Positions 2,525 to 24,702 of a DNA stretch of 64,000 nucleotides are shown here, piece after piece. This DNA is from Streptomyces sp. WZ-12 (GTDB lineage Bacteria; Actinomycetota; Actinomycetes; Streptomycetales; Streptomycetaceae). The notes below the pieces were generated by a model. It ran no database searches and was not told the origin of the DNA. It was given only the letters and a program-made list of their open reading frames with translations. The position numbers and the translations under genes are program-made. The DNA is taken from the NCBI RefSeq assembly GCF_028898845.1, contig NZ_CP118575.1, positions 186,001 through 250,000 of the forward strand. The letters run 5' to 3'. The first letter of the stretch is position 1; each line of letters begins with the position of its first letter.

Positions 2525-3667
2525 TCATGAGGTTGCCGGTTCCGTAGCGGTGCTGCGCCCAGATGAAAGAGGTTCAATCACAATAGACATTAATTCGAGA
2601 ATTTCCAAATGGATGGTTTTAGCGCGGGAGGTGTTTTCGGTGTCTTGAGTGGCCGCGATCTTGACGGTGCCAGAACGCCCCATCCGTTGAGTTGTGGACG
2701 CCTCGCCATCATCAGAGGCGTTTAGTTCTTGAGTAATGTCATTTGAGCCCGCTAGTTCGAAATTAACTTTGACTTTAGGGGCTCCTGATCCGGCGGTGGG
2801 TTGCGCCTGAGCGACTCCGACGGCGATAGAGTACGGATTACCATTAGAGCCAGCTTCGAGTTCGAGAGGGAGGGGAGTAAATTCTCCTTCAGCTATTGCG
2901 CCTTCACCCTCCTTGCTTTCCTCCCAGACTTTGATGGTGAACGGGCCGGGCTCATATTCTGGTCCCGGTCCAGGATCCTTGTAAGTGTGGAAGCAGGTGG
3001 TTCCATCTACGTCCTCTACGATACCATCTCCCCAGTCCACTTTAACTTCTACCTCTTCACCTGTGTCCCGGTTATGAATGTTGACCGCGACGTCGGCCCA
3101 ATATGGGCCAGATTTGACGACCAGATACAGGCCGGCGGCGATCTTATATTCGAGGTGGGCGGGGCAGTGAGCCCGCACGAGCCGGTCGAATTGTTCGCGG
3201 ACTCTTGGTTCGTTGAGATCCAAATCGCTGCCTTGTTCGGAGACGAGTTGGCGGGCGATGATTTGCACAATGCGGTCGTCAGGGTTTACGCCGTGGGGTT
3301 CGGTGATGCTCAGTTTCCATCCATACACGTCGCGGGCTTCGGCGATGAGTGCTTGGGGTGTTCCGATGCGGGCATTGATCCATCCGCAGCTGTCGATGGC
3401 GGCGCGGCGGCGTTGTTCGGACCAGCCGGGTTCGGTGCGGGCTCCGCTGATGTGGACGAGCCAGTCGAGGAAGGTTGCGGGTGCACTCCAGGGGTCGAAG
3501 AGGTTAGGGAAGCTGTCGAGGGCGTGTGCCATGGGGTCGAGGAGTGCGTCGATTCCCGCGGCGAAGGCTCGGACGACATGGTCTTGCGTGTAGATGGAGG
3601 GGAGTAGTTGTGCGGTGTGGCCCTGCCCGGTGATTGCGGGCGTGTTGTCGGAATGGGAAGTCGTCAT
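2525..3667 (-). CDS. eCIS tail protein I-like baseplate component with PKD-like C-terminus
   Basis: The protein has 380 residues from ATG 3667, which has GAGGAGAG just upstream; an in-frame earlier ATG lacks this. The first ~190 residues resemble the phage tail protein I (gpI) family (LLPSIYTQD at the start, then FLDWLVHISG and LVRAHCPAHLEY), which caps the baseplate wedge and links to fibres (Afp12-like). Residues ~195-270 look like a PKD fold (VDWGDG, FHTY, FTIKVW), followed by a further beta-rich segment. The stop overlaps the ATPase ATG. The extension beyond the gpI core may be a surface or receptor module, which is inference. Confidence 0.85.
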   Translation of the reverse strand: MTTSHSDNTPAITGQGHTAQLLPSIYTQDHVVRAFAAGIDALLDPMAHALDSFPNLFDPWSAPATFLDWLVHISGARTEPGWSEQRRRAAIDSCGWINARIGTPQALIAEARDVYGWKLSITEPHGVNPDDRIVQIIARQLVSEQGSDLDLNEPRVREQFDRLVRAHCPAHLEYKIAAGLYLVVKSGPYWADVAVNIHNRDTGEEVEVKVDWGDGIVEDVDGTTCFHTYKDPGPGPEYEPGPFTIKVWEESKEGEGAIAEGEFTPLPLELEAGSNGNPYSIAVGVAQAQPTAGSGAPKVKVNFELAGSNDITQELNASDDGEASTTQRMGRSGTVKIAATQDTENTSRAKTIHLEILELMSIVIEPLSSGRSTATEPATS

Positions 3668-3841
3668 CTTTGCTCTCCTCATGTTTACACAGCGGGAAGT
3701 TCTCTTATTCGGTTGCCTCCTGATGTGTCTGGTGGCGCGGTGTGCAGCACCTTACGCTGCGTTCTCTACGGTGCCGTCGCCTCATCCACCGCTGCTTCGT
3801 GCTGTCGTGCTTCCGCCGTGGCCCACTTGTCGAGGCTTGGG

Positions 3842-6800
3842 TTAGGTTTCGATTTCTACAGTGATCTCGTGCTGACCTGAGTAGATTGTTTCCAGGGGGC
3901 AAAGATCGATACTGTCCGTCAGCTCATCCGCTGTGACAGTGTTCCCTGCGGAGCGTGCGAATGATAGGGAATCAATGCGTTGCAGGTCAGGGAGCTTTTG
4001 CAGCTCCCTGTATGCCTCGCCGATGTGGACGCGTCGACCGAAGGGCCAGCCTGAGTGATGAGGGCCGCCTCCGTGAACAGGGTTAAAAAGGCGGTACATG
4101 GCCTTCTCGGCAACATCCTGCAGTGCCTCGCAATCTTCCGGAGTGCTGTCGGCCGCCGCGTAAATCGTCCCTACGACACGGACTTCTTGGTATTGGGGAG
4201 GCTCGATTTCGAGGTCCACCCCAGGAGGCATGATACGAGCCAGCCCGCGGGTCAGAGTGGCTTTCAGTTCCGGCGAGGGATCGAGCAGTTCGAGGTCGAT
4301 AGAGCCATCAGGTTCTGCAGCGACGCTCGGTACGACTATGAGGTGCACCCTGTCCGGGTTTTGCCGTAGTGCCATCTCGGCATCGAGGCCGCCGGTGGCC
4401 GCTGTGGGGTTCACGATAATGAGGCCGGGAATCTCCTCGGATAGCTGGGAGACCATGCCCGCGGGCACGTTGCCCTGGGCGCCTTGGCTAACGAGGTAGT
4501 CCCGACCGACTTGGATTGTTGCCCCCAAAGGGGGCACTGCGCCGTGCTGATAGGTGTTGATGGCGTCGTAGTTCACACACGGGCCGAAGGAGACCTCCCC
4601 GGTCGCATGGTCGATGACAATATGTCGATCATCTGGATGGGAAGCAGCAAAGGACTCCACGGGTGTCCATTCCTGGAACTCTCCCCCAGCGGTGACCAGC
4701 ACGGTCGGGGCGTCGCCAAGAATTGGCCAGGCAGGCAGGCTCAGGCGTTGGCCTGGGCAGCCGGTGGCCGTGCCGATGGAGGCGCCGGCGGGGACACAGT
4801 CGGCTTGTATGGCACCTACGCTTGCGGTCTGTGCGTACGCGCAGGCGCGTATCACTGGCGCGGGCTGTCCGGAGGTATCCAGCACGCATGACAGCCAAGC
4901 ACCCGCCCGTTGTGGGAACCCCTGCGCGCGGAGTGCAGCGCCGTCTGGAAACAACTCGTCAAGGGTGTGCGGGAGCACCTGGTTTACGGCCTCGTGCCAG
5001 CCGGGGATATCGCCGAGCCGAGCAGACAGGATCGTCGTGTCGTCGGTGCCGGCCTGGGGTTGAGTTTGGCTGCGGAGGATGGAGGGACTGAAAGGACCGA
5101 GGCCGTGCAAAGTCACTGTCAACGTGGGCGGCTGTTGGGCGTCGATCGTGCCCGCTGGAAAAGTGAACGTCAAGGTCGCGTCGGGCAAGGGGAGATCTTC
5201 GGGGATCGCGGTGGTGAATCCGGCGGGTGCACCCAGATCCACACTACCCCCGACCCATGGTCCTTGGGCTCCGTCCTGTACGAGCGATAGTCCAATCTGC
5301 CGCACCAGGGAGACGGAATCGGTGGTCATGAAGCGCACCGGCGGGGTACGCGTGTCTAGGGCGGGCTGCAGCGCGACGCTTCCTGCGGGGAGTTGGACAT
5401 CGATAGTGCTCAGGGCCGGATTGCTCAGGCTCACGGTCAAGGTTGTGGTGGCCGCGCGGCAGGGTGTTGTGGAGACCGCGGGCGAAAGTTGCTCGTAATC
5501 GGTGGTAGGGACCCGGGCCTGTACAACCCCGGCCGCGACACGGCGGGCAAGTTGCTCGTAGTCGTAGGCGACTACCGCGCGCTCGGGGACCGCCGCGCCC
5601 AACGGCGTGCGTTCAGCGGCCTCGAGCAAGGTTTCGCCGTCAGCCCCACCTGTGCAGGAGGTGGGGTTGGTTACGGCGGAAACCTGGGGCAGCGGTGTGC
5701 GCAGTACCGAGATCGTGCCTGCCGCCACATTGCCCTGAGTACCGCCACCGACCAGGTAACTGCGCATGTGCAGGGCAGCACCGCTGACAGGCACGGCACC
5801 GTATTGCTGTATCCCGCTGGCCTCTTTGACTTGAATGCCAAAGACAACCTCCCCTGTGGCATGATCGAGAGTGAAATGACGATCCAGCGGGCCCGACTGA
5901 GAAAGAGACTCGACGAAGGACCATTCCTGACACTCCTCATTCACCGTTACTTCGGCGACCATCGGCCATGCTTGTGGCTGTGGCCTCTCTGTCAGGGCGA
6001 AACGCTGGCCGGGGAGCCCCGAGGAAACTCCTAACTCCTGTGCCGGCACGAGCCGTCCTTCCACCACCGGCGCACTCGCTTGCTGCTCCACGACCCGTAC
6101 TTGGCGCACCGGAAGTCCGTACTGCCACGATGAGGAGTCTGCCGGCCGGCATCGCAGCACACCAGCCCCGTCCGCGCGCAGCGGAGAGCCGCGCGGTCGT
6201 CCGAGGCGGACAGCGACGGGGGCGTGCCTGTGCGGTACTCGCAAGGTTACGGTAATGCTGTCCGATGCGGTGCGCTGATCCTCTGTTAGAACATCACATG
6301 GGGCCCAGGCCGAGCCCTGCCCTCTGCTCCCCACCCACGCCTCCCATACCCACGCCCCAGCTTCCTTCTCGGCGGCCACGTCGACGCGCACCCTGACGTG
6401 TTCCTTGGGCATCGGCCGAGACAACACCAGCAAGAGAAATGCGTTGCTCTCACCCGCACTGACAGAGTCCGCTGGGAGTAGGTTTCCCCGCAGTGCGGAC
6501 ATCGGATCATTGAGGTCCTCTTCGATGACAACGCCGGATCCTTCCAACCTCTGAGGAGAAAAGGCTATATCTCGGGTGGTGGTAAAGACCACTGGCTCCT
6601 CGTTCTCTGTGGATTCCGTGGCCACCTCTGTGCCCGCGGGTATCCGCACGCGTTGACCTGCATCGGCAAACAACTCAAAAACCACCGTGCCTCGTGCCGC
6701 GGATGACAGGTACGCACGCGCTCCGATCTGGCTCAGCAGCGCTCGACAGTTCATGCTTGGAGCAGAATTTAGCCGACTACGCAACGCGTCCGCCATCTGC

Positions 6801-6937
6801 GAAGATGCCGCCAGTAACGCCTCCCCCGGGTCCGCGCCCCAGCCATTCCATTTCCCTCCGGAGGCCCCCTGGACGGCCTCTCGCGCCTCGGACAATAATT
6901 CAGAGATGCTACGATCATCAACAGAGGGGTTATCCAT
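3842..6937 (-). CDS. Large baseplate J-like wedge protein (Afp11-type)
   Basis: This 1031-residue protein has the character of putative baseplate assembly proteins in eCIS loci. Two similar halves each carry an LVGGGTQGNVAAGT or LVSQGAQGNVPAGM motif and a repeated HATGEV(V/S)FG strand, features typical of the J/gp6-like family that forms the baseplate ring. It starts at ATG 6937 with only a weak ribosome site. It lies 175 bases before tail protein I, and that spacer holds no supported gene. Upstream is a 611-bp gap that breaks the otherwise compact operon. Confidence 0.88.
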   Translation of the reverse strand: MDNPSVDDRSISELLSEAREAVQGASGGKWNGWGADPGEALLAASSQMADALRSRLNSAPSMNCRALLSQIGARAYLSSAARGTVVFELFADAGQRVRIPAGTEVATESTENEEPVVFTTTRDIAFSPQRLEGSGVVIEEDLNDPMSALRGNLLPADSVSAGESNAFLLLVLSRPMPKEHVRVRVDVAAEKEAGAWVWEAWVGSRGQGSAWAPCDVLTEDQRTASDSITVTLRVPHRHAPVAVRLGRPRGSPLRADGAGVLRCRPADSSSWQYGLPVRQVRVVEQQASAPVVEGRLVPAQELGVSSGLPGQRFALTERPQPQAWPMVAEVTVNEECQEWSFVESLSQSGPLDRHFTLDHATGEVVFGIQVKEASGIQQYGAVPVSGAALHMRSYLVGGGTQGNVAAGTISVLRTPLPQVSAVTNPTSCTGGADGETLLEAAERTPLGAAVPERAVVAYDYEQLARRVAAGVVQARVPTTDYEQLSPAVSTTPCRAATTTLTVSLSNPALSTIDVQLPAGSVALQPALDTRTPPVRFMTTDSVSLVRQIGLSLVQDGAQGPWVGGSVDLGAPAGFTTAIPEDLPLPDATLTFTFPAGTIDAQQPPTLTVTLHGLGPFSPSILRSQTQPQAGTDDTTILSARLGDIPGWHEAVNQVLPHTLDELFPDGAALRAQGFPQRAGAWLSCVLDTSGQPAPVIRACAYAQTASVGAIQADCVPAGASIGTATGCPGQRLSLPAWPILGDAPTVLVTAGGEFQEWTPVESFAASHPDDRHIVIDHATGEVSFGPCVNYDAINTYQHGAVPPLGATIQVGRDYLVSQGAQGNVPAGMVSQLSEEIPGLIIVNPTAATGGLDAEMALRQNPDRVHLIVVPSVAAEPDGSIDLELLDPSPELKATLTRGLARIMPPGVDLEIEPPQYQEVRVVGTIYAAADSTPEDCEALQDVAEKAMYRLFNPVHGGGPHHSGWPFGRRVHIGEAYRELQKLPDLQRIDSLSFARSAGNTVTADELTDSIDLCPLETIYSGQHEITVEIET

Positions 6938-7548: not shown

Positions 7549-9018
7549 CTAATCTTCCACAGCAAAACTCGACTCGACATCGATCTCCAGCGTGCCCACC
7601 AGTTCCTTTGAGGCGAGCTGGACCTGTTGCGTAGGGTCGCTATTGGGGTTTTTCAGATCGAAGAGTTCGATCTGGTCGACCTCACGGACAGATGGAACTT
7701 TTTCCAGCGTTTGAAGGATCTCTCCTACGTGAACTGGCTTGCCCCAGGGCCAGCCGGTACCCTCTTCTCCACCGTATAGAGGGTGAAAGTACTGACGGAG
7801 GGCAGCTTCCGCGTCTTCCTTGACCTCTTCATCAGACGCGTTTACCCAGGGTGTCACCGTAGCCTTGATCTTAATCTCATGATAGATGGCGAGGACCGTT
7901 GTCACCGACGTGCCGATAATGCGTAGATCTTCTGCTCGCTTCTGAACTCTCCCTATGAGGTCGTCAGAACCCACAGAAAGAGACGTGTAAGTATCCGGTT
8001 GCGGAAATTGGGGAACGACGTTAAGCACTATGTTGCGGGGTACACCGCTGGGCAGCTCTTCTGTGGCAGCGCCTATACGCGCTACACCTGGGACGTGTTG
8101 TAGCGTACGTTCGAAGTCGGCAAGAGTGACAGCACGTTGCAGCGACGTAAGCCCCAGGGCCGAACGCTTAATTACTTCATCTACGGTCTCCGCCGAGCTC
8201 CCCATGTCCAGCAGTTCTCCGTCCGCTTCCAAATCGCCGCTATTCGTCAGAATTGTCACTGGAAAGGAGGAAGGAATAGGGACACTGGATGCAGTGTAGT
8301 ACGTTGCAGTAATGCGTTGACCTTGGTCCGGAATCGCACCGTATTGAAGCGATGTCGAAGTTTGTGAAACGTATACCAGAGGGCCAAACATGACCTTTCC
8401 GGATACATCGTCCCAAGTCCAGCACTCCTCCTCTTCTTTTCGGCGAGAAAAGGACAGGACGAGGTCCCAGGGATTCCCTTGACCATTGATAGTTACCGTC
8501 AAGAGCGGAGCATCGTTGGCCCATAACGTAGGCGACAGTGGTTGACGGGCAGGGGAAAAAGATTGCCCAGGCTGCCCCGTGGAGATACCCAGTACTTCGT
8601 CCTCGACTAGTTCTACAGCGGCGGCATCTATAACGATTCCTGATGAATCCTCGCTGACCATTGGAGCAGTGATCGTGATGAATTTCACTGGATACTCTGC
8701 ACTGGTCGCCTGAGTGCCGGGCGGGATCTGCGGCACGCTGCCATCAGCTTTGAGGGTGACTCGGATGCGGGGCGGCGTGGGAGGTGCGGGGGCAAGGCCG
8801 AGGAGTTTGAGTAGGGCGCGTTGGTGTGATTCTGGAACGCGATTGACTCGGTAGCAGAGCTCGTCCACCTGTTGGGCGCAGGCTTCGATCAGGGTGATGC
8901 CGGGGTCGGAGACGTTGTGGTCGGTCCAGGTGGGATCGAGGGTGGGAAGGAGTCGTTTGGCGGCGTCGACGAGGTCTTGGAAGCGGAGGTCGTCGAGGTT
9001 GGGGACAGGGAGGGCCAT
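7549..9018 (-). CDS. Baseplate J-like wedge protein (Afp/gp6-like)
   Basis: The protein has 489 residues starting MALPVPNLDD at ATG 9018, one base inside the gp25-like gene stop (TGATG) and preceded by GGAGGCGGG. The N-terminus has the conserved LLPTLDPTWTDHN and GITLIEACAQQVDELCYRVN pattern of the J/gp6 wedge family. The centre has VSGKVMFG and a C-terminal region typical of wedge arms (HEIKIKATV, YGGEEGTGWPWG). It should form the inner baseplate ring with the larger J-like protein encoded after it. Confidence 0.9.
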   Translation of the reverse strand: MALPVPNLDDLRFQDLVDAAKRLLPTLDPTWTDHNVSDPGITLIEACAQQVDELCYRVNRVPESHQRALLKLLGLAPAPPTPPRIRVTLKADGSVPQIPPGTQATSAEYPVKFITITAPMVSEDSSGIVIDAAAVELVEDEVLGISTGQPGQSFSPARQPLSPTLWANDAPLLTVTINGQGNPWDLVLSFSRRKEEEECWTWDDVSGKVMFGPLVYVSQTSTSLQYGAIPDQGQRITATYYTASSVPIPSSFPVTILTNSGDLEADGELLDMGSSAETVDEVIKRSALGLTSLQRAVTLADFERTLQHVPGVARIGAATEELPSGVPRNIVLNVVPQFPQPDTYTSLSVGSDDLIGRVQKRAEDLRIIGTSVTTVLAIYHEIKIKATVTPWVNASDEEVKEDAEAALRQYFHPLYGGEEGTGWPWGKPVHVGEILQTLEKVPSVREVDQIELFDLKNPNSDPTQQVQLASKELVGTLEIDVESSFAVED

Positions 9019-9440
9019 CACCCGCCTCCAGTGTTGGGTGTGGTTTCTTCGGGGATGACATAAAAGGGGAAGACGAGGTTCCGGATGCTGTTGGTGGAGC
9101 GGATGCGGTAGCGGATGTCGATGTACATCAGTCCGGGGGTGGTGTCGTCGGTGGCGATGCCGATGTGGTCGACCTCGATGCGGGGTTCCCACCGTTCGAG
9201 GGCGGTTTGGGTTTCATACACGGCCTGGCCGGCGGTCGTCGCGTCGAGGGGGGCAAAGAGCAGTGAGTGGACGTTACAGCCAAATTCCGGGCGCATCGCC
9301 CGTTCGCCGAGCCGGGTCGTGAGAATAATGTGGATGGCCTGTTCGATCTCGCGAGGGCCGCTGGTGAGTGCCACGGTGGCGTCGGCGTTGAAAGTGGCAG
9401 GATGTGTCCAGCCACGGCCGATCAGGGCGGTGTCGTTCAC
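9018..9440 (-). CDS. GPW/gp25-like baseplate wedge protein
   Basis: A 140-residue protein with the gp25 signature: IEQAIHIILTTRLGERAMRPEFG followed by the short beta segments of the family. Gp25/GpW lysozyme-like proteins nucleate the sheath on the baseplate in phages, T6SS and eCIS (Afp9-type). It starts with GTG 9440 behind GAGGAGG, and its stop overlaps the next gene's ATG by one base, indicating translational coupling. Length is normal for the family. Confidence 0.92.
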   Translation of the reverse strand: MNDTALIGRGWTHPATFNADATVALTSGPREIEQAIHIILTTRLGERAMRPEFGCNVHSLLFAPLDATTAGQAVYETQTALERWEPRIEVDHIGIATDDTTPGLMYIDIRYRIRSTNSIRNLVFPFYVIPEETTPNTGGG

Positions 9441-9503: not shown

Positions 9504-11294
9504 TCAGTTGATCTCCACGGATCTGCCTTCGATCTTGACGTTGCCTGTGGTCTTGAGCGTGAGATCAGCGCTGCCGGCGTCGAGGCTGAATCCCTCACCG
9601 TTTAGGATGATGGCACCGTTATCGGTGATGCTGATACTGCTGTCGCCGTTGGCTATGTCGATATTTCCGTCCTCCTGACTGAGGTGCAGGGTTCGCTGTC
9701 CGTCACCGGTGGTCAAGCAGACGTGCTGGTCGCCCGTGATGCTGGTGGTCTTGGTGAATCGATCGAGTTGCAGCACTTGCCTGCCCTCGCCGGTGGACAA
9801 TCGGATGCCTTGCGGATCCTTATCTTTGGCGTCAAGGAATTCGAGCCGGTCCCCGCTGCGGGACGCTAGCGATTGCCGGTTAATGTGATCTTTTGATTCG
9901 GGGTCGATCAGTGGGAGGTCTTCGCTGGAGGGGGTGGGTTTGTCCTTGCCATTGTAGAGACCGCCGAGGACGTAGGGATGGTCAAGTCGCCCTTGTTCAA
10001 ACCCGATGAGGACTTCGTCTCCGACCTCCGGGCTGATCACTCCGCCACCGCGAACGCCGCCCAGTTGCACCGTGCGGACCCAGTCGGTTTCGTAGGTTTC
10101 GCTGAGCCAGGGCAGCTTGAGTTTGACCTGGCCCCGGTCTTTGACGTGGTCCGGGGTGTTCTTGTCTGACTTGACAGCGACCACTTTGGCGACCGCCAGG
10201 CCTGCGTGGTAGCCGGGTGGGAGAGGCGGGCGTTCATAAGGCAAAGGAGCGGGAGGGGCCGTGCGAGCGCCAAGGCGTACCCAGGTCGTGTCGCCGTTCT
10301 GGTCGAAAACGTGCGTGACCGACGTAGCTGTATAGCGGCCAGTAAAGATTGACCCTGTGTTGATGAGGGTGACGGGCGTTCCGGCGCGGAGTTGAGGGGA
10401 GATACGGAGAGATGCCTCTAGTTCGATGAAGCCAGAGGTGATGGAGGTGGCCAGTGCCTCGGCTGTGGCTTTGGCGTCCTTGGCGGAGGTGCAACCGGTG
10501 GCCAGTTCGGTGGGCGGCGTGTCGAGGCCTAGTTTTTTGGCGGCTTCGCCGGGGGTCAAACCAAGGTCAATCTGTGGGCTTTTGCCGGCTTTGGCAGTCG
10601 TTGTGACGGTGTCCTTGATGAGAGGATCCCAGCCGATGACCTTGACCTCTTCAGCCTGCCCTGCGGAGTCGGCCATGATTCGCAAGGTGAGAAGATTATC
10701 ACCGAACTTGAGTACGTAGGGATTTTTGGCGGTGATTTGATTCAGATGTGGTGCTTTATCGGCTGCTGCTGGTCTCAGCAACGATAGTTCTTCGCGGTCC
10801 ACTACGAGTTCCAACCCGGTTTTGCGGGTGAGCATCTGGAGGAACTCCCAATCCGTCATATTCGTCTGGGCCATGTAGCCTTGTTCTTCGTCCCTATCGA
10901 CCTTTCCTAACTTCAGTTTGACACGCCTAACCACCTCGCCCAAGATTTCCTTGGTGGTCATTCCTTCATAAACGATCGCATGGCGTCCGTGATGGAGCCT
11001 GTGTGCGCGGTCCAGAGCTCTGATCACAGTGAACGTTCCGTCAGTGTTGAACTCTGTCTCCACTGCGGTCACTTCTCCATCGAAGAGCTCTTGCCGCGAG
11101 GAACCGATCGGCACGGAGATTTCCACTGTCGAACCGATGGAGATTTCGAACTTACTCAGCATCTCGTGATAAGGGTCTCGAAAACTCAGTCGGGCTGATG
11201 CTGGCAGGCGGGTGTGTGTATCGACGGAGAGACTTTCAAAAAAGCAGCCAGACAGCTGTTTGCTGTTGAAGATGATTTGAGGCAGATTAGCCAT
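9504..11294 (-). CDS. VgrG-like spike/hub protein (Afp8-type)
   Basis: The protein has 596 residues from ATG 11294 (MANLPQIIFNS), preceded by GGGAGG; a slightly earlier in-frame ATG has no ribosome site. The N-terminal two thirds resemble the gpD/gp27-like hub fold (TDWEFLQMLTRKTGLEL). Residues ~395-455 form the gp5/Vgr OB-fold (RGQVKLKLPWL, SPEVGDEVLIGFEQGR, PYVLGGLYN). The end is a repetitive beta-strand needle. It should make the trimeric spike under the tube. It overlaps the LysM gene by eight bases. No fused toxin domain is visible at the C-terminus. Confidence 0.92.
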   Translation of the reverse strand: MANLPQIIFNSKQLSGCFFESLSVDTHTRLPASARLSFRDPYHEMLSKFEISIGSTVEISVPIGSSRQELFDGEVTAVETEFNTDGTFTVIRALDRAHRLHHGRHAIVYEGMTTKEILGEVVRRVKLKLGKVDRDEEQGYMAQTNMTDWEFLQMLTRKTGLELVVDREELSLLRPAAADKAPHLNQITAKNPYVLKFGDNLLTLRIMADSAGQAEEVKVIGWDPLIKDTVTTTAKAGKSPQIDLGLTPGEAAKKLGLDTPPTELATGCTSAKDAKATAEALATSITSGFIELEASLRISPQLRAGTPVTLINTGSIFTGRYTATSVTHVFDQNGDTTWVRLGARTAPPAPLPYERPPLPPGYHAGLAVAKVVAVKSDKNTPDHVKDRGQVKLKLPWLSETYETDWVRTVQLGGVRGGGVISPEVGDEVLIGFEQGRLDHPYVLGGLYNGKDKPTPSSEDLPLIDPESKDHINRQSLASRSGDRLEFLDAKDKDPQGIRLSTGEGRQVLQLDRFTKTTSITGDQHVCLTTGDGQRTLHLSQEDGNIDIANGDSSISITDNGAIILNGEGFSLDAGSADLTLKTTGNVKIEGRSVEIN

Positions 11295-11988
11295 GCCAGC
11301 CTCCCACATCGGTGAGTGCCGGGATGGTCAGCACCGTGCCGGGCGCGAGGGCTGCGACGTCATCTATACCGTTGATTGTGGCGATGCGACGCCAATGGTC
11401 GGGGCTCCCGTAGTAGCGCCAGGAGATCAGAGGAAGAGATTCACCTGCGATGAATCGGTGCTGGGTGAGTGCATCGAAAGACCCTGATGTTGGATTTTGT
11501 CGTTGTATTTCCCCACCGATTTCTTCGATAGAGATAGAGCAGGTTGCTTGTACAGGTTCACCGCTAAGTAAAAACGCAGTGTAGATAGCATTCACATCTG
11601 TGATGCAACCATTGAAGCGCCCCGCCTGAGAGCCTCCCCATTCCAGGCGGACCCATGGCGGGGAGGGCCGCTGCGCATCGATGCTTTTTTGGGTGGGCCT
11701 GCAGCAGTTAAGGAGCTCATCAACCTTTTCTTGAACATAGAATTTCGCAGATGCATCGATGGCCCTGAAGCGAGCATCAAAACTGAGGGTACGGGGCTGC
11801 GCGCCGATAAATTCTGCGCGCGCGGCGGCCTGCGCTGCCCGGGCTGGAGTTCGAGCAAGCCTTGCCGACCCACCGGTCGACAATTGGGTCGGATTGAAGT
11901 TGAACTCGATATCTTTGATAAATGCCCCCGGGTTGGTGCTAAAATTGTCACCGGGCGGCTCGTATATCTTAATTTTCGCGTGGACCAT
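11287..11988 (-). CDS. CIS tube/hub protein with C-terminal LysM domain (Afp7-type)
   Basis: The protein has 233 residues. The N-terminal ~170 residues fit the CIS tube protein family (IKDIEFNFNPTQLS, then LSFDARFRAID), which sits between hub and inner tube. The C-terminus is one LysM repeat (HRFIAGESLPLISWRYYG, then NGIDDVAALAPGTVLTIP). The LysM may bind glycan or simply serve as an assembly domain, as in homologous eCIS proteins. It overlaps the spike gene that follows. Confidence 0.9.
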   Translation of the reverse strand: MVHAKIKIYEPPGDNFSTNPGAFIKDIEFNFNPTQLSTGGSARLARTPARAAQAAARAEFIGAQPRTLSFDARFRAIDASAKFYVQEKVDELLNCCRPTQKSIDAQRPSPPWVRLEWGGSQAGRFNGCITDVNAIYTAFLLSGEPVQATCSISIEEIGGEIQRQNPTSGSFDALTQHRFIAGESLPLISWRYYGSPDHWRRIATINGIDDVAALAPGTVLTIPALTDVGGWHG

Positions 11989-12042: not shown

Positions 12043-12456
12043 CTAGACGAATCCTTGGTGGCAAATCTCCAGGGTCTCCTCGGCCGCGGACACTCTACCC
12101 GCATCGAACGAGGGGCCCTTCCAACTCACGGGAAACACACCCATCAGGAGCCAACTGCCCAGTACTCTGCCATCCGGTCCGCTGGCCACAATCTCGCCTA
12201 AAGTGGGCAGAGGTACAATTCCTGAACTGCTGACCCACCACGACAGCGGTATGGTCTGCTTGGTGAAAGGCCGACTGAGCGTGATGTTGGAAAACCGTAC
12301 CCCGGTCGGCCACTTCCACGTAAAGGAATCGAACCCGCCCTCCTTGTACTCGTCGATCTCGACGTTACAGCTGAGCCCCTCGCATCGGGTAAAAAAACCA
12401 AACCCCAAAACACCTGCAGTGAATTTCCAGCTCATCGCGAAGTCATCGTCAGACAT
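12043..12456 (-). CDS. Second inner-tube-like protein (T4 gp19 family)
   Basis: The protein has 137 residues from ATG 12456 (MSDDDFAMSWKF) with GGGAAGGGAG upstream; a GTG eight codons earlier is less likely. It has the tube-family pattern: F..CEGLSCNVEIDEYKEGG and VRFSNITLSRPFTK. eCIS loci usually encode more than one tube paralogue; the copy beside the LysM gene likely forms the tube-initiating ring on the hub (Afp5-like). Confidence 0.88.
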   Translation of the reverse strand: MSDDDFAMSWKFTAGVLGFGFFTRCEGLSCNVEIDEYKEGGFDSFTWKWPTGVRFSNITLSRPFTKQTIPLSWWVSSSGIVPLPTLGEIVASGPDGRVLGSWLLMGVFPVSWKGPSFDAGRVSAAEETLEICHQGFV

Positions 12457-12543
12457 GACGAAACTTTCTCCCTTCCCCACTCAGATACATAGAGTGGCTT
12501 CCAATATTGAAGTGGCGGCGATTAAGCAGGTTCGACGATCGAT

Positions 12544-14115: not shown

Positions 14116-14274
14116 TCACCTGCCTTCGTTGATGGTGGTGTTGATGCGGTTGATTTCGTTGACGTACCGCAGCCGTTCGTGGTGGGTGAGACTGTGGATG
14201 TCTTGGAGTGCCCAGTGGAAGTGGTAGGCGATGTAGGAGGTCTCGCGGTGCAGCTGGTCCACTGGGTGGGTCAC
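14116..14274 (-). CDS. DUF6760-type small eCIS protein
   Basis: A 52-residue gene too short for most ORF calls. It starts with GTG 14274, which overlaps the stop of the preceding gene (GTGA). The product begins VTHPVDQLHRETSYIAYHFH and continues LTHHERLRYVNEINRIN, the histidine- and aromatic-rich pattern of the small DUF6760 proteins found at this place in eCIS loci. Its role is unknown; the strict position beside the baseplate chaperone gene suggests an assembly factor. Confidence 0.82.
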   Translation of the reverse strand: MTHPVDQLHRETSYIAYHFHWALQDIHSLTHHERLRYVNEINRINTTINEGR

Positions 14275-14693
14275 GATTCCCCCAGGCGACCACGGGTTTC
14301 ACGCCCTGGGACTTCCGTTCCGCAGGAGGGGCATGCCAGTGGCTTGGGGTTGACGTCATTGATTTGCTCGTAGAGGTCCTGCAGGTAGGCGAGGTCGACT
14401 GCGAAGAGCGACTCCATGATGTTGGGGTTAACCTCGGGTAGAGAGCCGAGTTGGGTGACAACCAGGCTCAGGAGCACTACTCCCAGATAGGCTTCGTTGT
14501 CTCGCACGCGCAGGTCAGCCAAAGGCGCGAGTTCGTCCCGGGCGGTGGCTCGACGCATGGTGCCGCTGCGGTGCACGGTTCCGGTGGAGTCGACGTATCC
14601 CAAGGGAAGTTCGAAGGTGAATTCGATCTGCAGGTGTTGGGCAGCGGACGAGGTAGGCGGGGCGCCTGCGCGGGTAGGGGTTTCGATGGTCAT
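14271..14693 (-). CDS. T4-type baseplate hub assembly chaperone
   Basis: A 140-residue protein matching the T4 baseplate (gp26-like) chaperone family: FELPLGYVDSTGTVHRSGTMRRAT, then a helical part ending DLAYLQDLYEQIN. The tail has a CPSC pair that may be half of a metal site. It starts at ATG 14693, eight bases after the inner tube stop, and ends in a GTGA overlap with the small DUF6760-type gene. Expected to act during hub assembly and be absent from finished particles. Confidence 0.8.
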   Translation of the reverse strand: MTIETPTRAGAPPTSSAAQHLQIEFTFELPLGYVDSTGTVHRSGTMRRATARDELAPLADLRVRDNEAYLGVVLLSLVVTQLGSLPEVNPNIMESLFAVDLAYLQDLYEQINDVNPKPLACPSCGTEVPGRETRGRLGES

Positions 14694-14700
14694 ACGGCGG

Positions 14701-15147
14701 CTACGCTCCTTCGACGTCTACGTCTTCGTAGGTAACGGTGACCCTCTCTTGTGCGGCTCCTGACTGGCCTGCTTGGAGTGCGGGGGCTTCCCATGACTTG
14801 GCCCAAGCGTTGGACAGGCGGATGCGGCGGACAACCTCTTTTTGAGCATTCATCAGTACGATGGTGATGTTCTGTCGGGCCCCGTCGACGTCATGGTTTT
14901 CGACGGTCTGTTTGACCCAGTTGGTGAATGCGAGGTTCTTGTCCAGGCCGCGGGTGATGGTCACCTCGCCAGAGGTGGGGGGCCCGGGCTGCTTGCGCAG
15001 GATCGGGGTGCCGTCCGCGGTCACCTGGCGTACTTCGATCTCTTCCTGCCCGTAGGTGATGGCGCTGATCTCCTGGAAGGTCTCTACCAGAATACCGCCT
15101 AATTCTACGCCGAAAACGTTCGTACTTGCTGTGTCTCCGATGGCCAT
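14701..15147 (-). CDS. Main inner tube protein (Hcp/Afp1-like)
   Basis: The protein has 148 residues. It opens MAIGDTASTNVFG and has the tube signature VETFQEISAI followed by GEVTITRGLDKNLAFTNWV and VTVTYEDVDVEG, as in phage tail tube and Hcp-like proteins of eCIS. It sits 32 bases after the sheath stop, the usual sheath-tube pairing. It should stack as hexameric rings forming the ~1:1 partner of the sheath. Confidence 0.93.
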   Translation of the reverse strand: MAIGDTASTNVFGVELGGILVETFQEISAITYGQEEIEVRQVTADGTPILRKQPGPPTSGEVTITRGLDKNLAFTNWVKQTVENHDVDGARQNITIVLMNAQKEVVRRIRLSNAWAKSWEAPALQAGQSGAAQERVTVTYEDVDVEGA

Positions 15148-15179: not shown

Positions 15180-16505
15180 CTAGGATTCGGGTCCTCCGAC
15201 GATTTGGGTCACTCTGAAGGTGATGAATTCACCGGGTCGAACGGCGGCGATGCCGATGTCACAGTAGACCTCACCGGCGGCTATGGATGTGGGGTCGTTG
15301 TTCGTTTCGTCGCAGATGACGTAGTAGGCATCGGAAGGCGTTGCTCCTGCCAGGGCGCCTGCGCGCCATTGGTCCCTGAGGAATACAGAGACGTTACCTC
15401 TGAGGCTGGACCACAGTCGTTCGTCGTTGGGTTCGAATATAGCCCACCGACTGCTGACACGGATTGATTCCTGGATGAAGTTGCACAGTCTCCGGACGTT
15501 TATGTACCTCCAGTCAACATCGGAAGAATCGACCTGAGTGCGCGCACCCCAGACGCGGATTCCTTGACCCCTGAAGGATCGGATACAGTTCAGCCCTTTT
15601 TCGTTGAGCTCGGCCTGTTCTTCATCCATGAGATTCTTCTCGAGGTCCAGGACGCCTTGGAGCACTTCGTTGGCCGGCGCCTTGTGTACTCCTCGCTTTC
15701 CGTCAACCCGCGCCCACATTCCTGCGACATGCCCCACCGGCGGTACATACATCTTCTCCCCTGCATTATCGAATACCTCCAGCCACGGGTAGTATAAAGC
15801 GGAGAATTTTGCGCTGTCATCCTCGGTAATCAGGGGGGTGAGTTCCAATGCGGCCCGGTCCCCCAAGCCTTCCTGGAGGTGAAGCACAGTCATACGATTG
15901 CGCATCTTTGCGCAATGGGCCGCCATCGCTCTTGCATTGAGCTTCGCCTGCTCCTCTGTGCCAAACCACAAGTCAGGGGCGATTACGATGGTGACGTCTT
16001 CAAGGGCTTCGAGTTCCGCCAAGCCGGTTCCATTGGCCCGGCTTCCCTGGTACGATGGAGCCTCCGCTTGTTCGGGTTCTGCTGCCGTGTCATCTTCCCC
16101 GCCAGCGTCGTCAACGCCACCATCGCCGGATGCAAACGGCGACATATTTTCCGTCGCACTGTAGTTATCATCTACTGCGACCCTATAGCAGGGTCCGCCT
16201 CCGTTTTCAAACCATCCCCGTATTGCAGCCGGCACATAAGTAGATGCCGGTTCGCCTGTGGATGCGGGTGTGCGGTTATCCCACGGAGCAGACAGAAACT
16301 CGTCGTCCCCTAGATTAGCCCCAGGCGCACCCACCTCTCCAAAGGTACTATTAAGCTCCTCCCATTCCTGCCAGTTCCGGATGAATTGGGGTTCGCCGTC
16401 ATACTGCGGATCCAAGAAGGCGGCACATGCGGTGGCCACGCCCTGAACCAAGCGCACCCCACTAGGAACCTCCTGCACATACACACCAGGAGCTTGCGGC
16501 GTCAT
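15180..16505 (-). CDS. Contractile sheath protein (Afp2-like)
   Basis: The protein has 441 residues from ATG 16505 (MTPQAPGVYVQEVPSG) preceded by GGAGAG; an upstream in-frame start at 16625 lacks a ribosome site and adds an unlikely 40 residues. The N-terminal APGVYVQEVPSG and C-terminal LFVREGEF-like strand (RPGEFITFRVTQIVGG) are hallmarks of phage/eCIS sheaths. A conserved RGNVSVFLRDQWRAGAL segment precedes the C-terminal strand. This is probably the first gene of the minus-strand operon. Confidence 0.94.
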   Translation of the reverse strand: MTPQAPGVYVQEVPSGVRLVQGVATACAAFLDPQYDGEPQFIRNWQEWEELNSTFGEVGAPGANLGDDEFLSAPWDNRTPASTGEPASTYVPAAIRGWFENGGGPCYRVAVDDNYSATENMSPFASGDGGVDDAGGEDDTAAEPEQAEAPSYQGSRANGTGLAELEALEDVTIVIAPDLWFGTEEQAKLNARAMAAHCAKMRNRMTVLHLQEGLGDRAALELTPLITEDDSAKFSALYYPWLEVFDNAGEKMYVPPVGHVAGMWARVDGKRGVHKAPANEVLQGVLDLEKNLMDEEQAELNEKGLNCIRSFRGQGIRVWGARTQVDSSDVDWRYINVRRLCNFIQESIRVSSRWAIFEPNDERLWSSLRGNVSVFLRDQWRAGALAGATPSDAYYVICDETNNDPTSIAAGEVYCDIGIAAVRPGEFITFRVTQIVGGPES

Positions 16506-16797
16506 GTTCACTCTCCATCCATCATAGGATCTATGACCATCAGTATCGGACACGATATGTGCGGTGTCACCTGGCGAATGAACAGCGAGTAGGGGGAAGA
16601 TGCTGCCCCAAAGGGACCTCTTCAAGGCATCCCAACCAACTGGCCCCGCTTACGCCTCGGGGCATTCAGAATGTCCACGAGTCAGCCCATTAAGGCTGGC
16701 ATTCTCTGCACACAGTGCACAACCCTTAGATCTTGCTGCATGCTAAATTCCATCCCTGTTTCATTAGAGCTCATCCCCCTGCTCGAGAGGCCGGCCC
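16506..16797. promoter_or_regulatory. Divergent intergenic region, sheath operon / cap gene
   Basis: This 292-bp region lies between the outward-facing starts of sheath and cap and must hold the promoters for both units. It is relatively AT-rich near 16730-16770. I could not assign -10/-35 boxes or an operator with confidence. The ribosome site GAGAGG for the cap gene ends a few bases before GTG 16798. Confidence 0.5.
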
Positions 16798-18630
16798 GTG
16801 ATAAAAGAAGTGGATAACGCGTTACAAGTCATCGTGGATACCGAAATAGGTGAGGGGCAATTTGTCATTAAGTTTGATGCCCCCACTCGGGAAAAGGTTG
16901 CCGAGTGGGGCGGGGCCCATGCCGTCGACCTGTTCCTCTATGAAATCCACGAAGACCGAGCCAAGCGCTCCTGCGGCAGGATCTCCGTATACCAGAAGAA
17001 CGGAGAGGCCCCCACACTGGAAAACCTGGGCCCTGAGTACAAAATTGGGGAATATGAGGCACCGCGCTTCTTCGCCCTCACGTACATGCTCACGGTCTGG
17101 ACTGGAACTCCGATGGACGAACACCAAGTGCTCGGGCAATTGACTGCGCGCTTCGCCCATGAACAGACACTCCTATTGCCCTCTTTGGAAAGCATCCCCA
17201 TCCTCAAACTGCTCGGCGTCACTGCCTCGCTGGAAATTTCTGAGCTGCCGCAGGATCGGATCTTTACGGACCTGTGGCCCGCTATCGGTAATACCCACAC
17301 CCCGTTCGTCAGTCTGACCGTGACGCTTCCCTTGGTGTGGTTCGATGCGCCAGCGATCGAGTATCGTGTCGACAAGGTGACTGTGAGATTTCCCGACGAA
17401 GTGCCAAACGCCGCCCCGTCGATCACTGAGCCGCCCGCAGGCAACACCGGGCGCAGGCCTCAGATCAAAGGAACCTGTGTGGCCGGTGCGACCGTGACCG
17501 TGGCAACGACCAACGGAACGATCACCCCCGCCACCGTCACTCCCGGCGGCACCGCCACCACCTGGACACTCCCGAACCTCACCGATGACCTGGCAATCGG
17601 CAGACACGAGCTGACCGCCACCCAGACCGTCCCCGGCAGCGCCCCCTCCCCGGCCTCCACCCCCCTCACCATCACTGTGGTCGCTACACCTGCCCGCCTC
17701 GTCGTCTGGGGCGAGGGCGCGGACCAACTCACCACCGGGGCCCCTACAGAGCAGGGCTTCACCCAGGTCGCCTGCGCCGGAGCCGGCGGCGTCAACTATC
17801 CTCTGGTGGCGGTGGCGATTGACAAGGACGGCAAACTGCGCGTCTGGGGACAGAACGCGGCTCAGCTCTCCGAGGCTCCTACAGAGGAGGGCTTCACCCA
17901 AGTCGCCTGCACCGGCTACGGCCGCGCCGGCACTCTGGTGGCGGTGGCGATTGACAAGGACGGCAAACTGCGCGTCTGGGGACAGAACGCGGCTCAGCTC
18001 TCCGAGGCTCCTACAGAGGAGGGCTTCACCCAAGTCGCCTGCACCGGCTACGGCGTCGTCAACTATCCTCTGGTGGCGGTGGCGATTGACAAGGACGGCA
18101 AACTGCGCGTCTGGGGACAGAACGCGGCTCAGCTCTCCGAGGCTCCTACAGAGGAGGGCTTCACCCAAGTCGCCTGCACCGGCTTGGGCGGCGCCGACTC
18201 TCCTCTGGTGGCGGTGGCGATTGACAAGGACGGCAAACTGCGCGTCTGGGGACAGAACGCGGCTCAGCTCTCCGAGGCTCCTACAGAGGAGGGCTTCACC
18301 CAAGTCGCCTGCACCGGCTCCGGCCGCGCCGACTCTCCTCTGGTGGCGGTGGCGATTGACAAGGACGGCAAACTGCGCGTCTGGGGACAGAACGCGGCTC
18401 AGCTCTCCGAGGCTCCTACAGAGGAGGGCTTCACCCAAGTCGCCTGCACCGGCTCCGGCCGCGCCGACTCTCCTCTGGTGGCGGTGGCGATTGACAAGGA
18501 CGGCAAACTGCGCGTCTGGGGACAGAACGCGGCTCAGCTCCCCGAGGCTCCTACAGAGGAGGGCTTCACCCAAGTCGCCTGCACCGGCTCCGGCGGGGCC
18601 GACTCTCCTCTGGTGGCGGTGGCCCTTTAG
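16798..18630 (+). CDS. DUF4255 cap protein fused to Ig-like domain and RCC1-like propeller
   Basis: The protein has 610 residues from GTG 16798. Residues 1-205 match the DUF4255 (Pvc16/Afp16 N-terminal) family: VIVDTEIG, then VDLFLYEIHED and VWFDAPAIEYRVDKVTV. That family caps or terminates the distal end of eCIS tubes. Residues ~206-297 are an Ig-like linker (GTCVAGATVTV). Residues ~299-610 are seven RCC1-type blades of 44-46 residues, each reading VWGQNAAQL..APTEEGFTQVACTG then a short variable tip and LVAVAIDKDGK. The last blade ends LVAVAL at the stop, which closes a seven-blade ring exactly. Usual DUF4255 caps lack such a propeller as far as I know. Confidence 0.88.
   Translation: MIKEVDNALQVIVDTEIGEGQFVIKFDAPTREKVAEWGGAHAVDLFLYEIHEDRAKRSCGRISVYQKNGEAPTLENLGPEYKIGEYEAPRFFALTYMLTVWTGTPMDEHQVLGQLTARFAHEQTLLLPSLESIPILKLLGVTASLEISELPQDRIFTDLWPAIGNTHTPFVSLTVTLPLVWFDAPAIEYRVDKVTVRFPDEVPNAAPSITEPPAGNTGRRPQIKGTCVAGATVTVATTNGTITPATVTPGGTATTWTLPNLTDDLAIGRHELTATQTVPGSAPSPASTPLTITVVATPARLVVWGEGADQLTTGAPTEQGFTQVACAGAGGVNYPLVAVAIDKDGKLRVWGQNAAQLSEAPTEEGFTQVACTGYGRAGTLVAVAIDKDGKLRVWGQNAAQLSEAPTEEGFTQVACTGYGVVNYPLVAVAIDKDGKLRVWGQNAAQLSEAPTEEGFTQVACTGLGGADSPLVAVAIDKDGKLRVWGQNAAQLSEAPTEEGFTQVACTGSGRADSPLVAVAIDKDGKLRVWGQNAAQLSEAPTEEGFTQVACTGSGRADSPLVAVAIDKDGKLRVWGQNAAQLPEAPTEEGFTQVACTGSGGADSPLVAVAL
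17701..18630 (+). repeat. Seven near-identical propeller repeats (132/135 bp)
   Basis: The phrase encoding RVWGQN recurs at 17841, 17973, 18108, 18243, 18378 and 18513, spaced 132 then 135 bp. Blades 2-7 are almost identical in DNA apart from the codons of the loop after CTG (encoding YGRAGT, YGVVNYP, LGGADSP, SGRADSP twice, SGGADSP). Variation is concentrated in one loop per blade, on the same face of the propeller. Confidence 0.95.
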
Positions 18631-18811: not shown

Positions 18812-19552
18812 TCAGTCTGTCTTCTTCGTGGCTCCTCCTCGGGGGCGTTTGTTGGGCCGGTAGCTCGGGCCGTTCATGATCACCTGGTGGCTGGTGTTGA
18901 TGAGCCGGTCGAGTAGGGACTCCGCGACGACGGGGTTCGGGAAGAGCGGATACCAGTCACTCGGCGCCCTGTTACTCGTCAGGATCAGCGACCGCCCTTG
19001 CCGCTCGGAAACCAGCTCGTAGAGGTCGTCGGCCTGCGTCGCGGTGAGCTGACGCATCGCGAAGTCGTCGAGGATGAGCACGTCGGGCCGGATGAACTCG
19101 CGCATGCGCTTGTCCCAGGTGCGGTCCGCGAGGACCCGGCTGGTCTTGGCGAAGCGGACGTTCGCGCCCTGCCGGATCGCGAGGTGACCAAGTGCCTGAG
19201 CGACGTGCGTCTTCCCGACGCCAACGGGTCCGAACAAAATTACGGACTCGCCGGTGTGGAGCCAGCGCAGGGCGGCGAGGTCGCGGATCTGGGCCGCGGG
19301 CAGCTTCGATGAAGCCGCGAAGTCGAACTCCTCAAGTGTAACGGCCTGCTCGAACTTTGCTCGGTGCAGGCGCCGTTGGAGCGCGACGGTCTCGCGGCGG
19401 GTGATCTCGTCCTGGCAAAGGGTCTGCAGAAACTCCAGGTGCCCGAGCTCGCCGCCGTGGGCCTGGGCGAGGCGGGCGTCGAGGGTTTCGAGCATGCCCG
19501 ACAGCTTCAGCGCCCGCAGCGCGTCCCGCAGGGCGGTGTCCATGATGCTCAT
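18812..19552 (-). CDS. istB: IstB-like ATPase of IS21 element
   Basis: The protein has 246 residues with Walker A GPVGVGKT and Walker B VLILDDF, then SNRAPSDWYPLFP as in IstB transposition helper ATPases. It follows istA with a one-base gap. Between RVLAD and RTWDKR it seems about seven residues shorter than close relatives I recall (usually LAGGHAD there), which would fit slippage between GCGGAC repeats; whether it still works is unclear. Confidence 0.93.
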   Translation of the reverse strand: MSIMDTALRDALRALKLSGMLETLDARLAQAHGGELGHLEFLQTLCQDEITRRETVALQRRLHRAKFEQAVTLEEFDFAASSKLPAAQIRDLAALRWLHTGESVILFGPVGVGKTHVAQALGHLAIRQGANVRFAKTSRVLADRTWDKRMREFIRPDVLILDDFAMRQLTATQADDLYELVSERQGRSLILTSNRAPSDWYPLFPNPVVAESLLDRLINTSHQVIMNGPSYRPNKRPRGGATKKTD

Positions 19553-19553
19553 C

Positions 19554-21343: not shown

Positions 21344-21572
21344 TCACCGACTGGCATGCGCCGTCGCCCTGCGTACGGTTCCGGTAAGGCGGTAGACCCG
21401 GAGCCGTGTGATCCACCCGTAGGTGAAACGGGTGGTTCCAGTTCCGACCCCGCAGGCCGTGTTTTCGGCTGGCGAGGATCGCCAGCCGTTCGTGGACGTA
21501 GCCGTCGACCGCGTTGAACTTCCGCCCGGAGTTCCCGTTGCGGAAGTACGCTCCCCAGCCCCGCAGCACAGG
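21344..21572 (-). pseudogene. Group II intron maturase, C-terminal remnant
   Basis: The minus strand encodes RGWGAYFRNGNSGRKFNAVDGYV and RKHGLRGRNWN, the maturase/X-domain end of group II intron reverse transcriptases. After a frameshift, the next frame gives FTYGWITRLRVYRLTGTV and ends at a TGA just before the IS21 insertion. The upstream RT domain is missing, cut off by an IS3-A copy at 21573. Confidence 0.82.
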
Positions 21573-21641
21573 TGAGGTTCCCCCGAGATGCGGAGGATGG
21601 TGACAGAGGGTCAGATGGTTCTCATGAGAGGAACATCGACC

Positions 21642-21950
21642 ATGGCTGCCCCCAGGAAGTCCTCGCTGGAGTTGCGCGAGCGTGCGGTGCGGATGTACCG
21701 GACCTCCGACCCGAAGCCCCAGATCAAGCGACTGGCTATCGAGCTCGGCGTGCATCCCGAGGCCCTGCGCGGCTGGATCCGGCAGGCCGAGGCCGATGCC
21801 GGCGAGCGGGACGACCGGCTGGCCAGCGACGAACGCGTCGAACTCGCCGCGCTTCGCAAGGAGAACGCCCAGCTCAAGCGCGCGAACGAAGTTCTGCGGA
21901 CGGCCTCGGCTTTTTTCGCGGCGCAACTCGACCCGACCCGGCCCAGGTGA
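21642..21950 (+). CDS. IS3-A copy 1 OrfA
   Basis: A 102-residue helix-turn-helix protein with a leucine-zipper tail (MAAPRKSSLELRERAVRMY, then LAALRKENAQLKRANEVL). Near its end TTTTTTC is a -1 slippery site; slipping there joins it to OrfB to give the OrfAB transposase. The stop overlaps an OrfB GTG (GTGA). Confidence 0.93.
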   Translation: MAAPRKSSLELRERAVRMYRTSDPKPQIKRLAIELGVHPEALRGWIRQAEADAGERDDRLASDERVELAALRKENAQLKRANEVLRTASAFFAAQLDPTRPR

Positions 21951-24633: not shown

Positions 24634-24702
24634 GGTCGATGTTCCTCTCATGAGAACCATCTGACCCTCTGTCACCATCCTCCGCATCTCGGGGGAACCT
24701 CA

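What the first reader, a model, noticed from the sequence alone, without database searches (positions are those of the whole stretch)
16798..18630. eCIS cap protein carrying an Ig-like linker and a self-contained seven-blade RCC1-like propeller
The DUF4255/Pvc16-type domain normally ends the eCIS tube as a small cap. Here the same polypeptide continues into an Ig-like domain and exactly seven RCC1-type blades, starting and ending at positions that close a ring. Six of the seven blades are near-identical in DNA, and differences cluster in one loop per blade, on the same face. This looks like a recognition or anchoring surface displayed at the end of the particle opposite the spike, under recent amplification or gene conversion. 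It would mean the non-spike end has a binding job, for example to a membrane, regulator or host factor.
Basis: partly seen in the sequence, partly recalled or inferred. Interest (0 to 1): 0.78.

Follow-up and report, generated by a model that had tools for sequence, protein, structure and literature searches.

The report
Injection-particle cap with propeller head
A gene from a likely Streptomyces bacterium joins the protein predicted to close the back end of a phage-tail-like injection particle to a predicted seven-bladed propeller whose near-identical blades differ mainly in one loop, so the back end of the particle would likely carry a binding head, a fusion found in none of the other caps compared here.

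The parts
16798..18630 (+). fusion gene: cap + Ig-like domain + seven-blade propeller, 610 aa, GTG start
   Evidence: single intact frame
16807..17352 (+). Pvc16_N (DUF4255) cap domain, residues 4-185
   Evidence: Pfam E 1e-15; phmmer to 9gts_0A E 4.6e-15; Foldseek rank 1 = 9gts_0A E 2.1e-10 with the full-length model
17341..17469 (+). low-confidence linker and start of the Ig part, residues 182-224
   Evidence: pLDDT below 50 for residues 182-224; base composition changes near 17410
17410..17691 (+). Ig-like domain, residues 205-298
   Evidence: 86-88% identical to Ig copies of the paralogue; paralogue copies match Big_13; GC 69.5% against 55.6% in the cap part
17695..17832 (+). blade 1, residues 300-345, diverged copy; its first strand is like that of the paralogue's blade 1
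17833..18504 (+). blades 2-6, residues 346-569, framework identical in DNA, one loop per blade variable (blades 5 and 6 are identical)
18505..18627 (+). blade 7, residues 570-610, ends in the strand VAVAL that would close the ring with the start of blade 1
   Evidence: strands modelled at 593-596 and 606-609
15180..16625 (-). eCIS sheath protein, transcribed divergently from the cap gene
   Evidence: Phage_sheath_1C E 9.4e-20 and Phage_sheath_1 E 1.4e-19
14701..15147 (-). tube protein 1
   Evidence: Phage_T4_gp19 E 4e-24
14271..14693 (-). 140-aa ORF between tube 1 and the repeat array, no Pfam match
12043..12480 (-). tube protein 2
   Evidence: Phage_T4_gp19 E 5.7e-18
11287..11988 (-). CIS_tube protein with, by eye, a LysM-like end (Pvc7 type; the name is recalled)
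   Evidence: CIS_tube E 2.8e-15
9504..11309 (-). hub/spike protein (VgrG type)
   Evidence: Phage_base_V E 3e-15 and Phage_GPD E 3.4e-9
9018..9440 (-). gp25-like baseplate wedge protein
   Evidence: GPW_gp25 E 1.8e-25
7549..9192 (-). baseplate J-like protein 1 (true start probably inside this ORF)
   Evidence: Baseplate_J E 2e-7
3842..6937 (-). baseplate J-like protein 2
   Evidence: Baseplate_J E 5.1e-13
2525..3682 (-). tail protein I with, by eye, a PKD-like C-terminal part; its homologue in Streptomyces sp. H27-H5 continues into the Ig array
   Evidence: Tail_P2_I E 4.8e-7; 44% identity over 355 columns to L107
365..2500 (-). AAA ATPase (Pvc15 type; the name is recalled)
   Evidence: WHD and AAA domains

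Best explanation
This gene fuses the cap domain of a phage-tail-like injection particle to an Ig-like domain and a seven-blade array predicted to fold as an RCC1-type propeller, which likely acts as a binding arm transplanted from the baseplate onto the back (non-spike) end of the particle. Shown: one intact frame; cap-domain homology; seven blades with homogenised framework and loop-focused amino-acid change; a composition seam at the junction; the same Ig family on the baseplate tail protein I of a sister eCIS; a second Ig+propeller gene on the same contig. Predicted: the cap fold, the closed ring, and a flexible linker that leaves cap and head as separate bodies. Inferred: because known CIS caps are hexamers, up to six heads would crown the distal end and hold multivalently to a repeated ligand (a surface glycan or protein), tethering, clustering or orienting the particle, while the loops diversify to change what is bound and the framework is kept uniform by repeat exchange. 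Not tested: any ligand, any particle.
Against: No ligand, expression or particle data. The fusion is known from one genome (cluster of one member), so conservation by selection cannot be tested. Target binding in other eCIS is at the baseplate end (PMC12923769, PMC13314943, passages), and the S. coelicolor CIS is cytoplasmic with a bare cap and no fibres seen (PMC12237407, passages), so a rear-end binder lacks a precedent. In the paralogue the framework also varies (9 of 31 columns in blades 2-6), so loop focus is less exclusive there; blades 5 and 6 of the window are identical, loops included. The H27-H5 Ig arm ends without a propeller, and its tail-I gene and cap lie on different contigs, so their belonging to one eCIS is inferred. 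GC3 of the module (79-81%) is no higher than that of one cluster gene (gp25, 79%), so part of the seam may reflect amino-acid make-up. The Ig part of both models has low confidence. Transposase genes lie next to the gene.
Confidence: 0.5

Rival explanations
1. Young accidental fusion: IS-driven recombination joined a stray Ig+propeller module to the cap gene; it is tolerated because it hangs off the free C-terminus, and has no task at the distal end.
For: An IS21-type pair (18812-21170) lies just downstream of the gene, and transposase genes lie on both sides of the paralogue; composition seam; single known example.
Against: In frame near the natural end of the cap domain; all seven blades open; blades 2-6 differ from each other only by amino-acid changes in the loop plus one in-frame codon deletion, with no framework changes, which neutral decay would not give; the ring has the exact number of blades.
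Confidence: 0.22
2. Producer-side anchor or array former: the head binds a partner inside or on the producing cell (membrane, regulator, neighbouring particle), so the distal end is tethered while the baseplate faces outward.
For: The S. coelicolor CIS is cytoplasmic and its firing requires a membrane protein, CisA (PMC12237407, listing and passages); a distal-end anchor would leave the spike end free.
Against: A fixed self partner does not call for loop diversity; the paralogue and the sister eCIS place the same module family in tail-arm contexts; nothing here shows where the particle resides.
Confidence: 0.18
3. Structural extension: Ig and propeller stabilise the end of the sheath, as the Alg16B cap adaptor does, and bind nothing external.
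For: Caps of other eCIS have a second domain or a partner that stabilises the sheath end (PMC8894135, PMC13314943, passages); ten of the 166 caps compared carry tails of 209-235 aa that look Ig/TIG-like by eye, though Pfam names no such domain in the four of them scanned.
Against: Residues 182-224 are modelled with pLDDT below 50 and pTM is 0.56, so no fixed packing on the cap is predicted (monomer only); a structural part would not need loop-only variation; most caps compared, the sister caps included, do without such a part.
Confidence: 0.08
4. Assembly artefact: the array is a collapsed or expanded repeat from sequencing.
For: 135-bp near-identical units are a classic assembly hazard.
Against: Genome in two contigs; blades carry distinct loops in fixed places; the independent paralogue also has exactly seven; no reads were available to check.
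Confidence: 0.02

Closest known systems
Cis16, cap of the Streptomyces coelicolor CIS (PDB 9gts; PMC12237407)
   Same: Pvc16_N domain; best sequence and fold match
   Different: Cis16 alone forms a minimal hexameric cap (passages); no propeller reported there
Pvc16 / Afp16 caps (PDB 6j0f, 6rap; 293 and 295 aa, PMC8894135)
   Same: cap fold plus a second domain after it
   Different: their second domain is part of the terminator; here the addition is an Ig module shared with tail-arm proteins plus a 311-aa propeller
eCIS tail fibres with beta-propeller lectins and Ig folds (PMC12923769)
   Same: modular Ig/propeller binding parts in eCIS clusters
   Different: those are anchored to the baseplate by eBAP domains; here the anchor is the cap at the other end
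Tail protein I with Ig array, Streptomyces sp. H27-H5 (L107)
   Same: same Ig family (51% over 406 columns to the paralogue) in a sister eCIS
   Different: on the baseplate, several Ig copies, no propeller seen
Highly repetitive RCC1/BLIP-II propellers (PMC9218822)
   Same: near-identical RCC1-type blades; recent amplification is a known process
   Different: the section and passages seen describe none on an injection-system cap; by eye, longer variable loops replace the short loop of the Rhodococcus/Prescottella relatives
Umbrella toxin lectins of Streptomyces (PMC13274773)
   Same: diversified beta-propeller heads on a Streptomyces antibacterial particle
   Different: the two-target propellers described have 6 blades and another has 5 (seven-bladed families are also listed); umbrella particle, not a contractile system
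WD40 arrays of fungal NLRs (HET-D family; PMC4986451)
   Same: uniform repeats with a few diversified binding positions per repeat
   Different: WD40 not RCC1, intracellular receptors; shown there across alleles, here within two arrays of one genome

Membership tests
eCIS/CIS cap (Pvc16/Cis16) | Pvc16_N domain at the N-terminus | tested here: met
   E 1e-15, 58.4 bits over cut-off 27
eCIS/CIS cap (Pvc16/Cis16) | cap fold | tested here: met
   predicted model: Foldseek rank 1 9gts_0A, E 2.1e-10; also 6j0f, 9qgn, 7b5i, 6rap
eCIS/CIS cap (Pvc16/Cis16) | lies in a cluster with sheath, tube, spike, baseplate and ATPase genes | tested here: met
eCIS/CIS cap (Pvc16/Cis16) | hexamer on the distal end of the particle | not testable with these tools
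   known for homologues (PMC12237407, PMC8894135, PMC8894136, passages); no multimer model or particle here
RCC1-type beta-propeller | RCC1 repeat profile above its cut-off | tested here: met
   RCC1_2 77.9 bits against 22
RCC1-type beta-propeller | whole-domain RCC1-like model (WD40_RLD) above its cut-off | tested here: not met
   46.2 bits against 150; the profile is 363 positions long against about 311 residues here, and the secreted RCC1 relatives L118 and L119 also stay below it (129.7 and 143 bits)
RCC1-type beta-propeller | seven blades and whole-ring structural match | tested here: met
eCIS baseplate tail fibre (eBAP type) | N-terminal baseplate-anchoring domain eBAP1-5 | not tested
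   no eBAP model was searched; the N-terminus here is a cap domain
Bacterial propeller lectin (BP39L/CV39L type) | fold and sugar-binding residues | tested here: inconclusive
Diversity-generating retroelement target | DGR reverse transcriptase in the genome | tested here: not met
   the two RVT_1 genes found both carry the group II intron maturase domain GIIM

The most novel reading that the evidence does not exclude
A two-ended injection particle: the distal cap has captured a baseplate receptor-binding arm whose seven-blade propeller is a diversifying recognition surface, with the framework kept identical by repeat exchange and one loop per blade freed to change, so that six heads with 42 variable loops crown the rear of the particle and decide where it is held. 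The paralogue on the same contig would be a donor or partner reservoir of loops.
Probability: 0.27. Interest if true: 0.86.

Novelty: new variant of a known kind. Interest (0 to 1): 0.63.

Why it matters
If the head is displayed, the non-spike end of a contractile injection particle can have its own recognition job, which current models of eCIS (binding at the baseplate, terminator at the rear) do not include. It would show that arms move between baseplate and cap as modules, and it offers a bacterial case of propeller blades kept uniform while one loop diversifies. It is directly testable on one gene.

Tried and rejected
Homologues of the whole protein: two hits at E 1e-3 or better among 7996 candidates scored, itself and an unrelated RCC1-bearing transporter subunit at 25% identity over 42% of the query; a search with the cap region alone: only itself of 850 candidates. 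Plasmids: 35 records, none covering 80% of the query; phages: 3 records, propeller part only; viral contigs: no pattern match; the first genome-contig scan used two narrow patterns, 19 stretches matched and none was confirmed. Long 'open frames' of Pvc16_N matches in the genus looked like fusions; of 19 translated (17 long frames and the two other caps of this genome) the extra length lay upstream of the start, or was a tail that looks Ig/TIG-like or low-complexity by eye. Diversity-generating retroelement: rejected, both RTs are group II intron maturases. The Streptomyces atratus 'AAA ATPase' hit shows WD40-type propeller profiles among the 25 of 37 families listed, not RCC1. A blade-profile search of PDB sequences gave only two chance rows; the fold search did better. 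BLIP-II, a secreted RCC1-like binder, was not in the 50 rows shown by either fold search of the Ig+propeller model, so I draw no conclusion from it. The paralogue's N-terminus did not match the window's tail protein I by BLASTP (E 0.27), although it matches the H27-H5 arm. My first motif test for blades in cap tails failed on its own positive control and was replaced. The viral structure library gave RCC1 proteins of phages and giant viruses at the top; nothing more was drawn from it. Blade counts and loops among strains could not be compared: no second strain was found. Tape-measure and tail-fibre genes of this cluster were not searched for specifically.

Full report
OBSERVATION. The ORF at window 16798-18630 (+) is real and uninterrupted: GTG start, 610 residues. 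Pfam finds Pvc16_N at residues 4-185 (E 1e-15) and RCC1_2 repeats (E 3.7e-22). By sequence the nearest solved chain is 9gts_0A, the cap of the Streptomyces coelicolor CIS (E 4.6e-15; title). The repeats form seven units; successive starts are 46, 44, 45, 45, 45 and 45 residues apart and the seventh ends at the stop. TRF finds the array with period 135 and 94% matches.

WHERE IT LIES. The window is G000:C2:186001-250000, on a 378,325-base second contig of a two-contig, 9.55-Mb genome. The genus is inferred to be Streptomyces: a same-genus genome (G191) has a 19,496-base contig that matches, in length and in the start and length of its cap, a record of Streptomyces sp. H27-H5. On the minus strand beside the cap gene lie open ORFs for the sheath, two tube proteins, CIS_tube, hub, gp25, two baseplate J proteins, tail protein I and an AAA ATPase, ten in all, plus a 140-aa ORF without a Pfam match. 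The cap gene is divergent from the sheath gene with a gap of 172 bases. Of the three Pvc16_N matches in this genome this is the only one on the contig; the other two, on the chromosome-sized contig, are short and show no blades.

BLADE VARIATION. Among blades 2-6 the framework shows 0 differences in 310 codon comparisons, synonymous or not, while the loop between FTQVAC and VAVAI shows 19 nonsynonymous and 0 synonymous differences in 60 comparisons (the six equal-length pairs), plus a one-codon deletion in blade 2; 5 of 10 loop columns vary in blades 3-6. Blades 5 and 6 are identical throughout. Adding blade 7 brings three variable framework columns of 31. Identity at silent sites points to recent amplification or exchange; change only in the loop points away from neutral drift. 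The chance figure of 2e-4 treats codon columns as independent. DSSP puts the loop between two strands in the repeated blades, so by symmetry the loops lie on one side.

THE PARALOGUE. The same contig carries a second Ig+propeller gene at C2:368080-370398 (L032:9081-11399, 772 aa): about 90 residues that look PKD-like, four nearly identical Ig copies and seven blades. It is 77% identical to the window's module. Its loops are 11, 10, 12, 10, 9, 6 and 10 residues long and differ from each other. Its framework is less uniform (9 of 31 codon columns vary in blades 2-6). The consensus frameworks of the two arrays differ at 11 of 105 sites, so each array was amplified or homogenised on its own, as described for WRAP-type propellers (PMC9218822, section 12 read). 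Two arrays with exactly seven blades argue for a folded ring and against an assembly error.

ORIGIN OF THE MODULE. In G191 (Streptomyces sp. H27-H5) a 925-aa ORF starts with tail protein I (Tail_P2_I) and continues into Ig domains (Big_13, Big_6) with PKD matches below the Pfam cut-off. Its tail-I part is 44% identical to the window's own tail protein I and its PKD/Ig part 51% identical over 406 columns to the paralogue; the window's tail protein I itself does not match the paralogue. The sister cap in that genome is 202 aa, about 37% identical, ends about where the window's Ig domain begins, and is likewise divergent from its sheath gene. Tail I and cap are on different contigs there, with similar transposase ORFs on both, so that they form one eCIS is inferred. 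In the window the cap part has GC 55.6% and GC3 67%, the Ig part 69.5% and 81%, the propeller 67.6% and 79%; the eleven other eCIS ORFs measured have GC 56.1-63.1%, though gp25 reaches GC3 79%. The simplest reading is that an Ig+propeller arm was joined to the free end of an ordinary cap.

HOW RARE. Pvc16_N occurs in 192 of 295 genomes of the genus sample and 30 of 396 of the phylum sample. In all loci held, 166 distinct Pvc16_N domains were compared: the window's tail after the domain is 425 residues, the next 235, the median 57.5; two of the 166 are cut by contig ends. A blade profile hits 1 of 166 tails, the window's own. Ten others have tails of 209-235 residues that look Ig/TIG-like by eye, but Pfam finds only Pvc16_N in the 16 other caps of alignment A3, four of these long ones included. 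A profile search of 5.8 billion proteins, which scored 7997 candidates, listed 120 of 231 hits (259-421 aa apart from this one); among the 120 only the window's protein has RCC1 among its Pfam domains. The survey is mostly actinobacterial. A query with the Ig+propeller part finds matches in 36 of 295 genus genomes, at no more than 41% identity for blades outside the own genome; the best Ig match outside is H27-H5 at 58%.

LITERATURE. Passages of ten papers were seen and one section read; none was read whole. eCIS fibres with propeller lectins and Ig folds are known at the baseplate; that paper's main text has no 'RCC1' and uses Pvc16_N as a marker (PMC12923769). Caps in solved systems are hexamers, with a second domain or an adaptor in some (PMC8894135, PMC8894136, PMC12237407, PMC13314943). 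No paper in the library holds both 'contractile injection system' and 'RCC1'; searches on caps, DUF4255, Pvc16, propeller and adhesin gave no cap-borne propeller in the listings and passages seen. Subscription papers and preprints are not held. Nearest working analogues are the propeller lectins of Streptomyces umbrella particles (PMC13274773) and the WD40 arrays of fungal NLRs, where repeats evolve in concert and four positions per repeat are under diversifying selection at the interaction surface (PMC4986451).

VERDICT. The architecture is solid; the recognition role is the best inference, with idle fusion the main rival. What would most change this view is a second strain or a particle image. 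It is a new variant of a known kind, resting on one genome.

Noticed in passing
window 13030-13748 (inside ORF 12544-14109, minus strand): A 210-bp tandem array, 3.4 copies at 99% identity, sits inside the eCIS operon between tube genes; the surrounding 521-aa ORF has no Pfam match and other frames are open too.
   Followed up: partly
L093:1151-3687 (G000:C2:169151-171687, left of the window): Two minus-strand ORFs with a transposase-like ORF between them: one with three near-identical PKD/Ig-like repeats, the other resembling, by eye, a different (lectin- or sialidase-like) propeller; no clear Pfam match for either; possibly another arm of this eCIS.
   Followed up: partly
L093:7708-8505 and L093:8970-9710: An inositol polyphosphate kinase domain (PF03770, E 1.2e-20) and a calpain-family protease domain (PF00648, E 1.8e-7) lie left of the eCIS cluster; possible cargo, untested.
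   Followed up: no
L032:9081-11399 (G000:C2:368080-370398): Free-standing Ig x4 + seven-blade propeller gene between transposase genes, with no cap or tail-I domain found; its partner or location is unknown.
   Followed up: partly
window 21572-22864 and 23411-24712: Two nearly identical IS3-type transposase ORFs (HTH_21, rve) in opposite orientation near the cap gene, beyond an IS21-type pair at 18812-21170.
   Followed up: partly
L033, L039, L098, L099, L102, L106, L120, L124, L129, L137: Another class of actinobacterial caps carries tails of 209-235 residues that look like Ig/TIG-like domains by eye; Pfam names none in the four scanned.
   Followed up: partly
L118:5857-7140 and L119:1769-3052: Plasmids of Prescottella equi and Rhodococcus qingshengii encode proteins with highly repetitive RCC1 blades, by eye a signal-like N-terminus, and an Ig-like C-terminal part (He_PIG matched in the first); the same loop position varies by eye.
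   Followed up: partly
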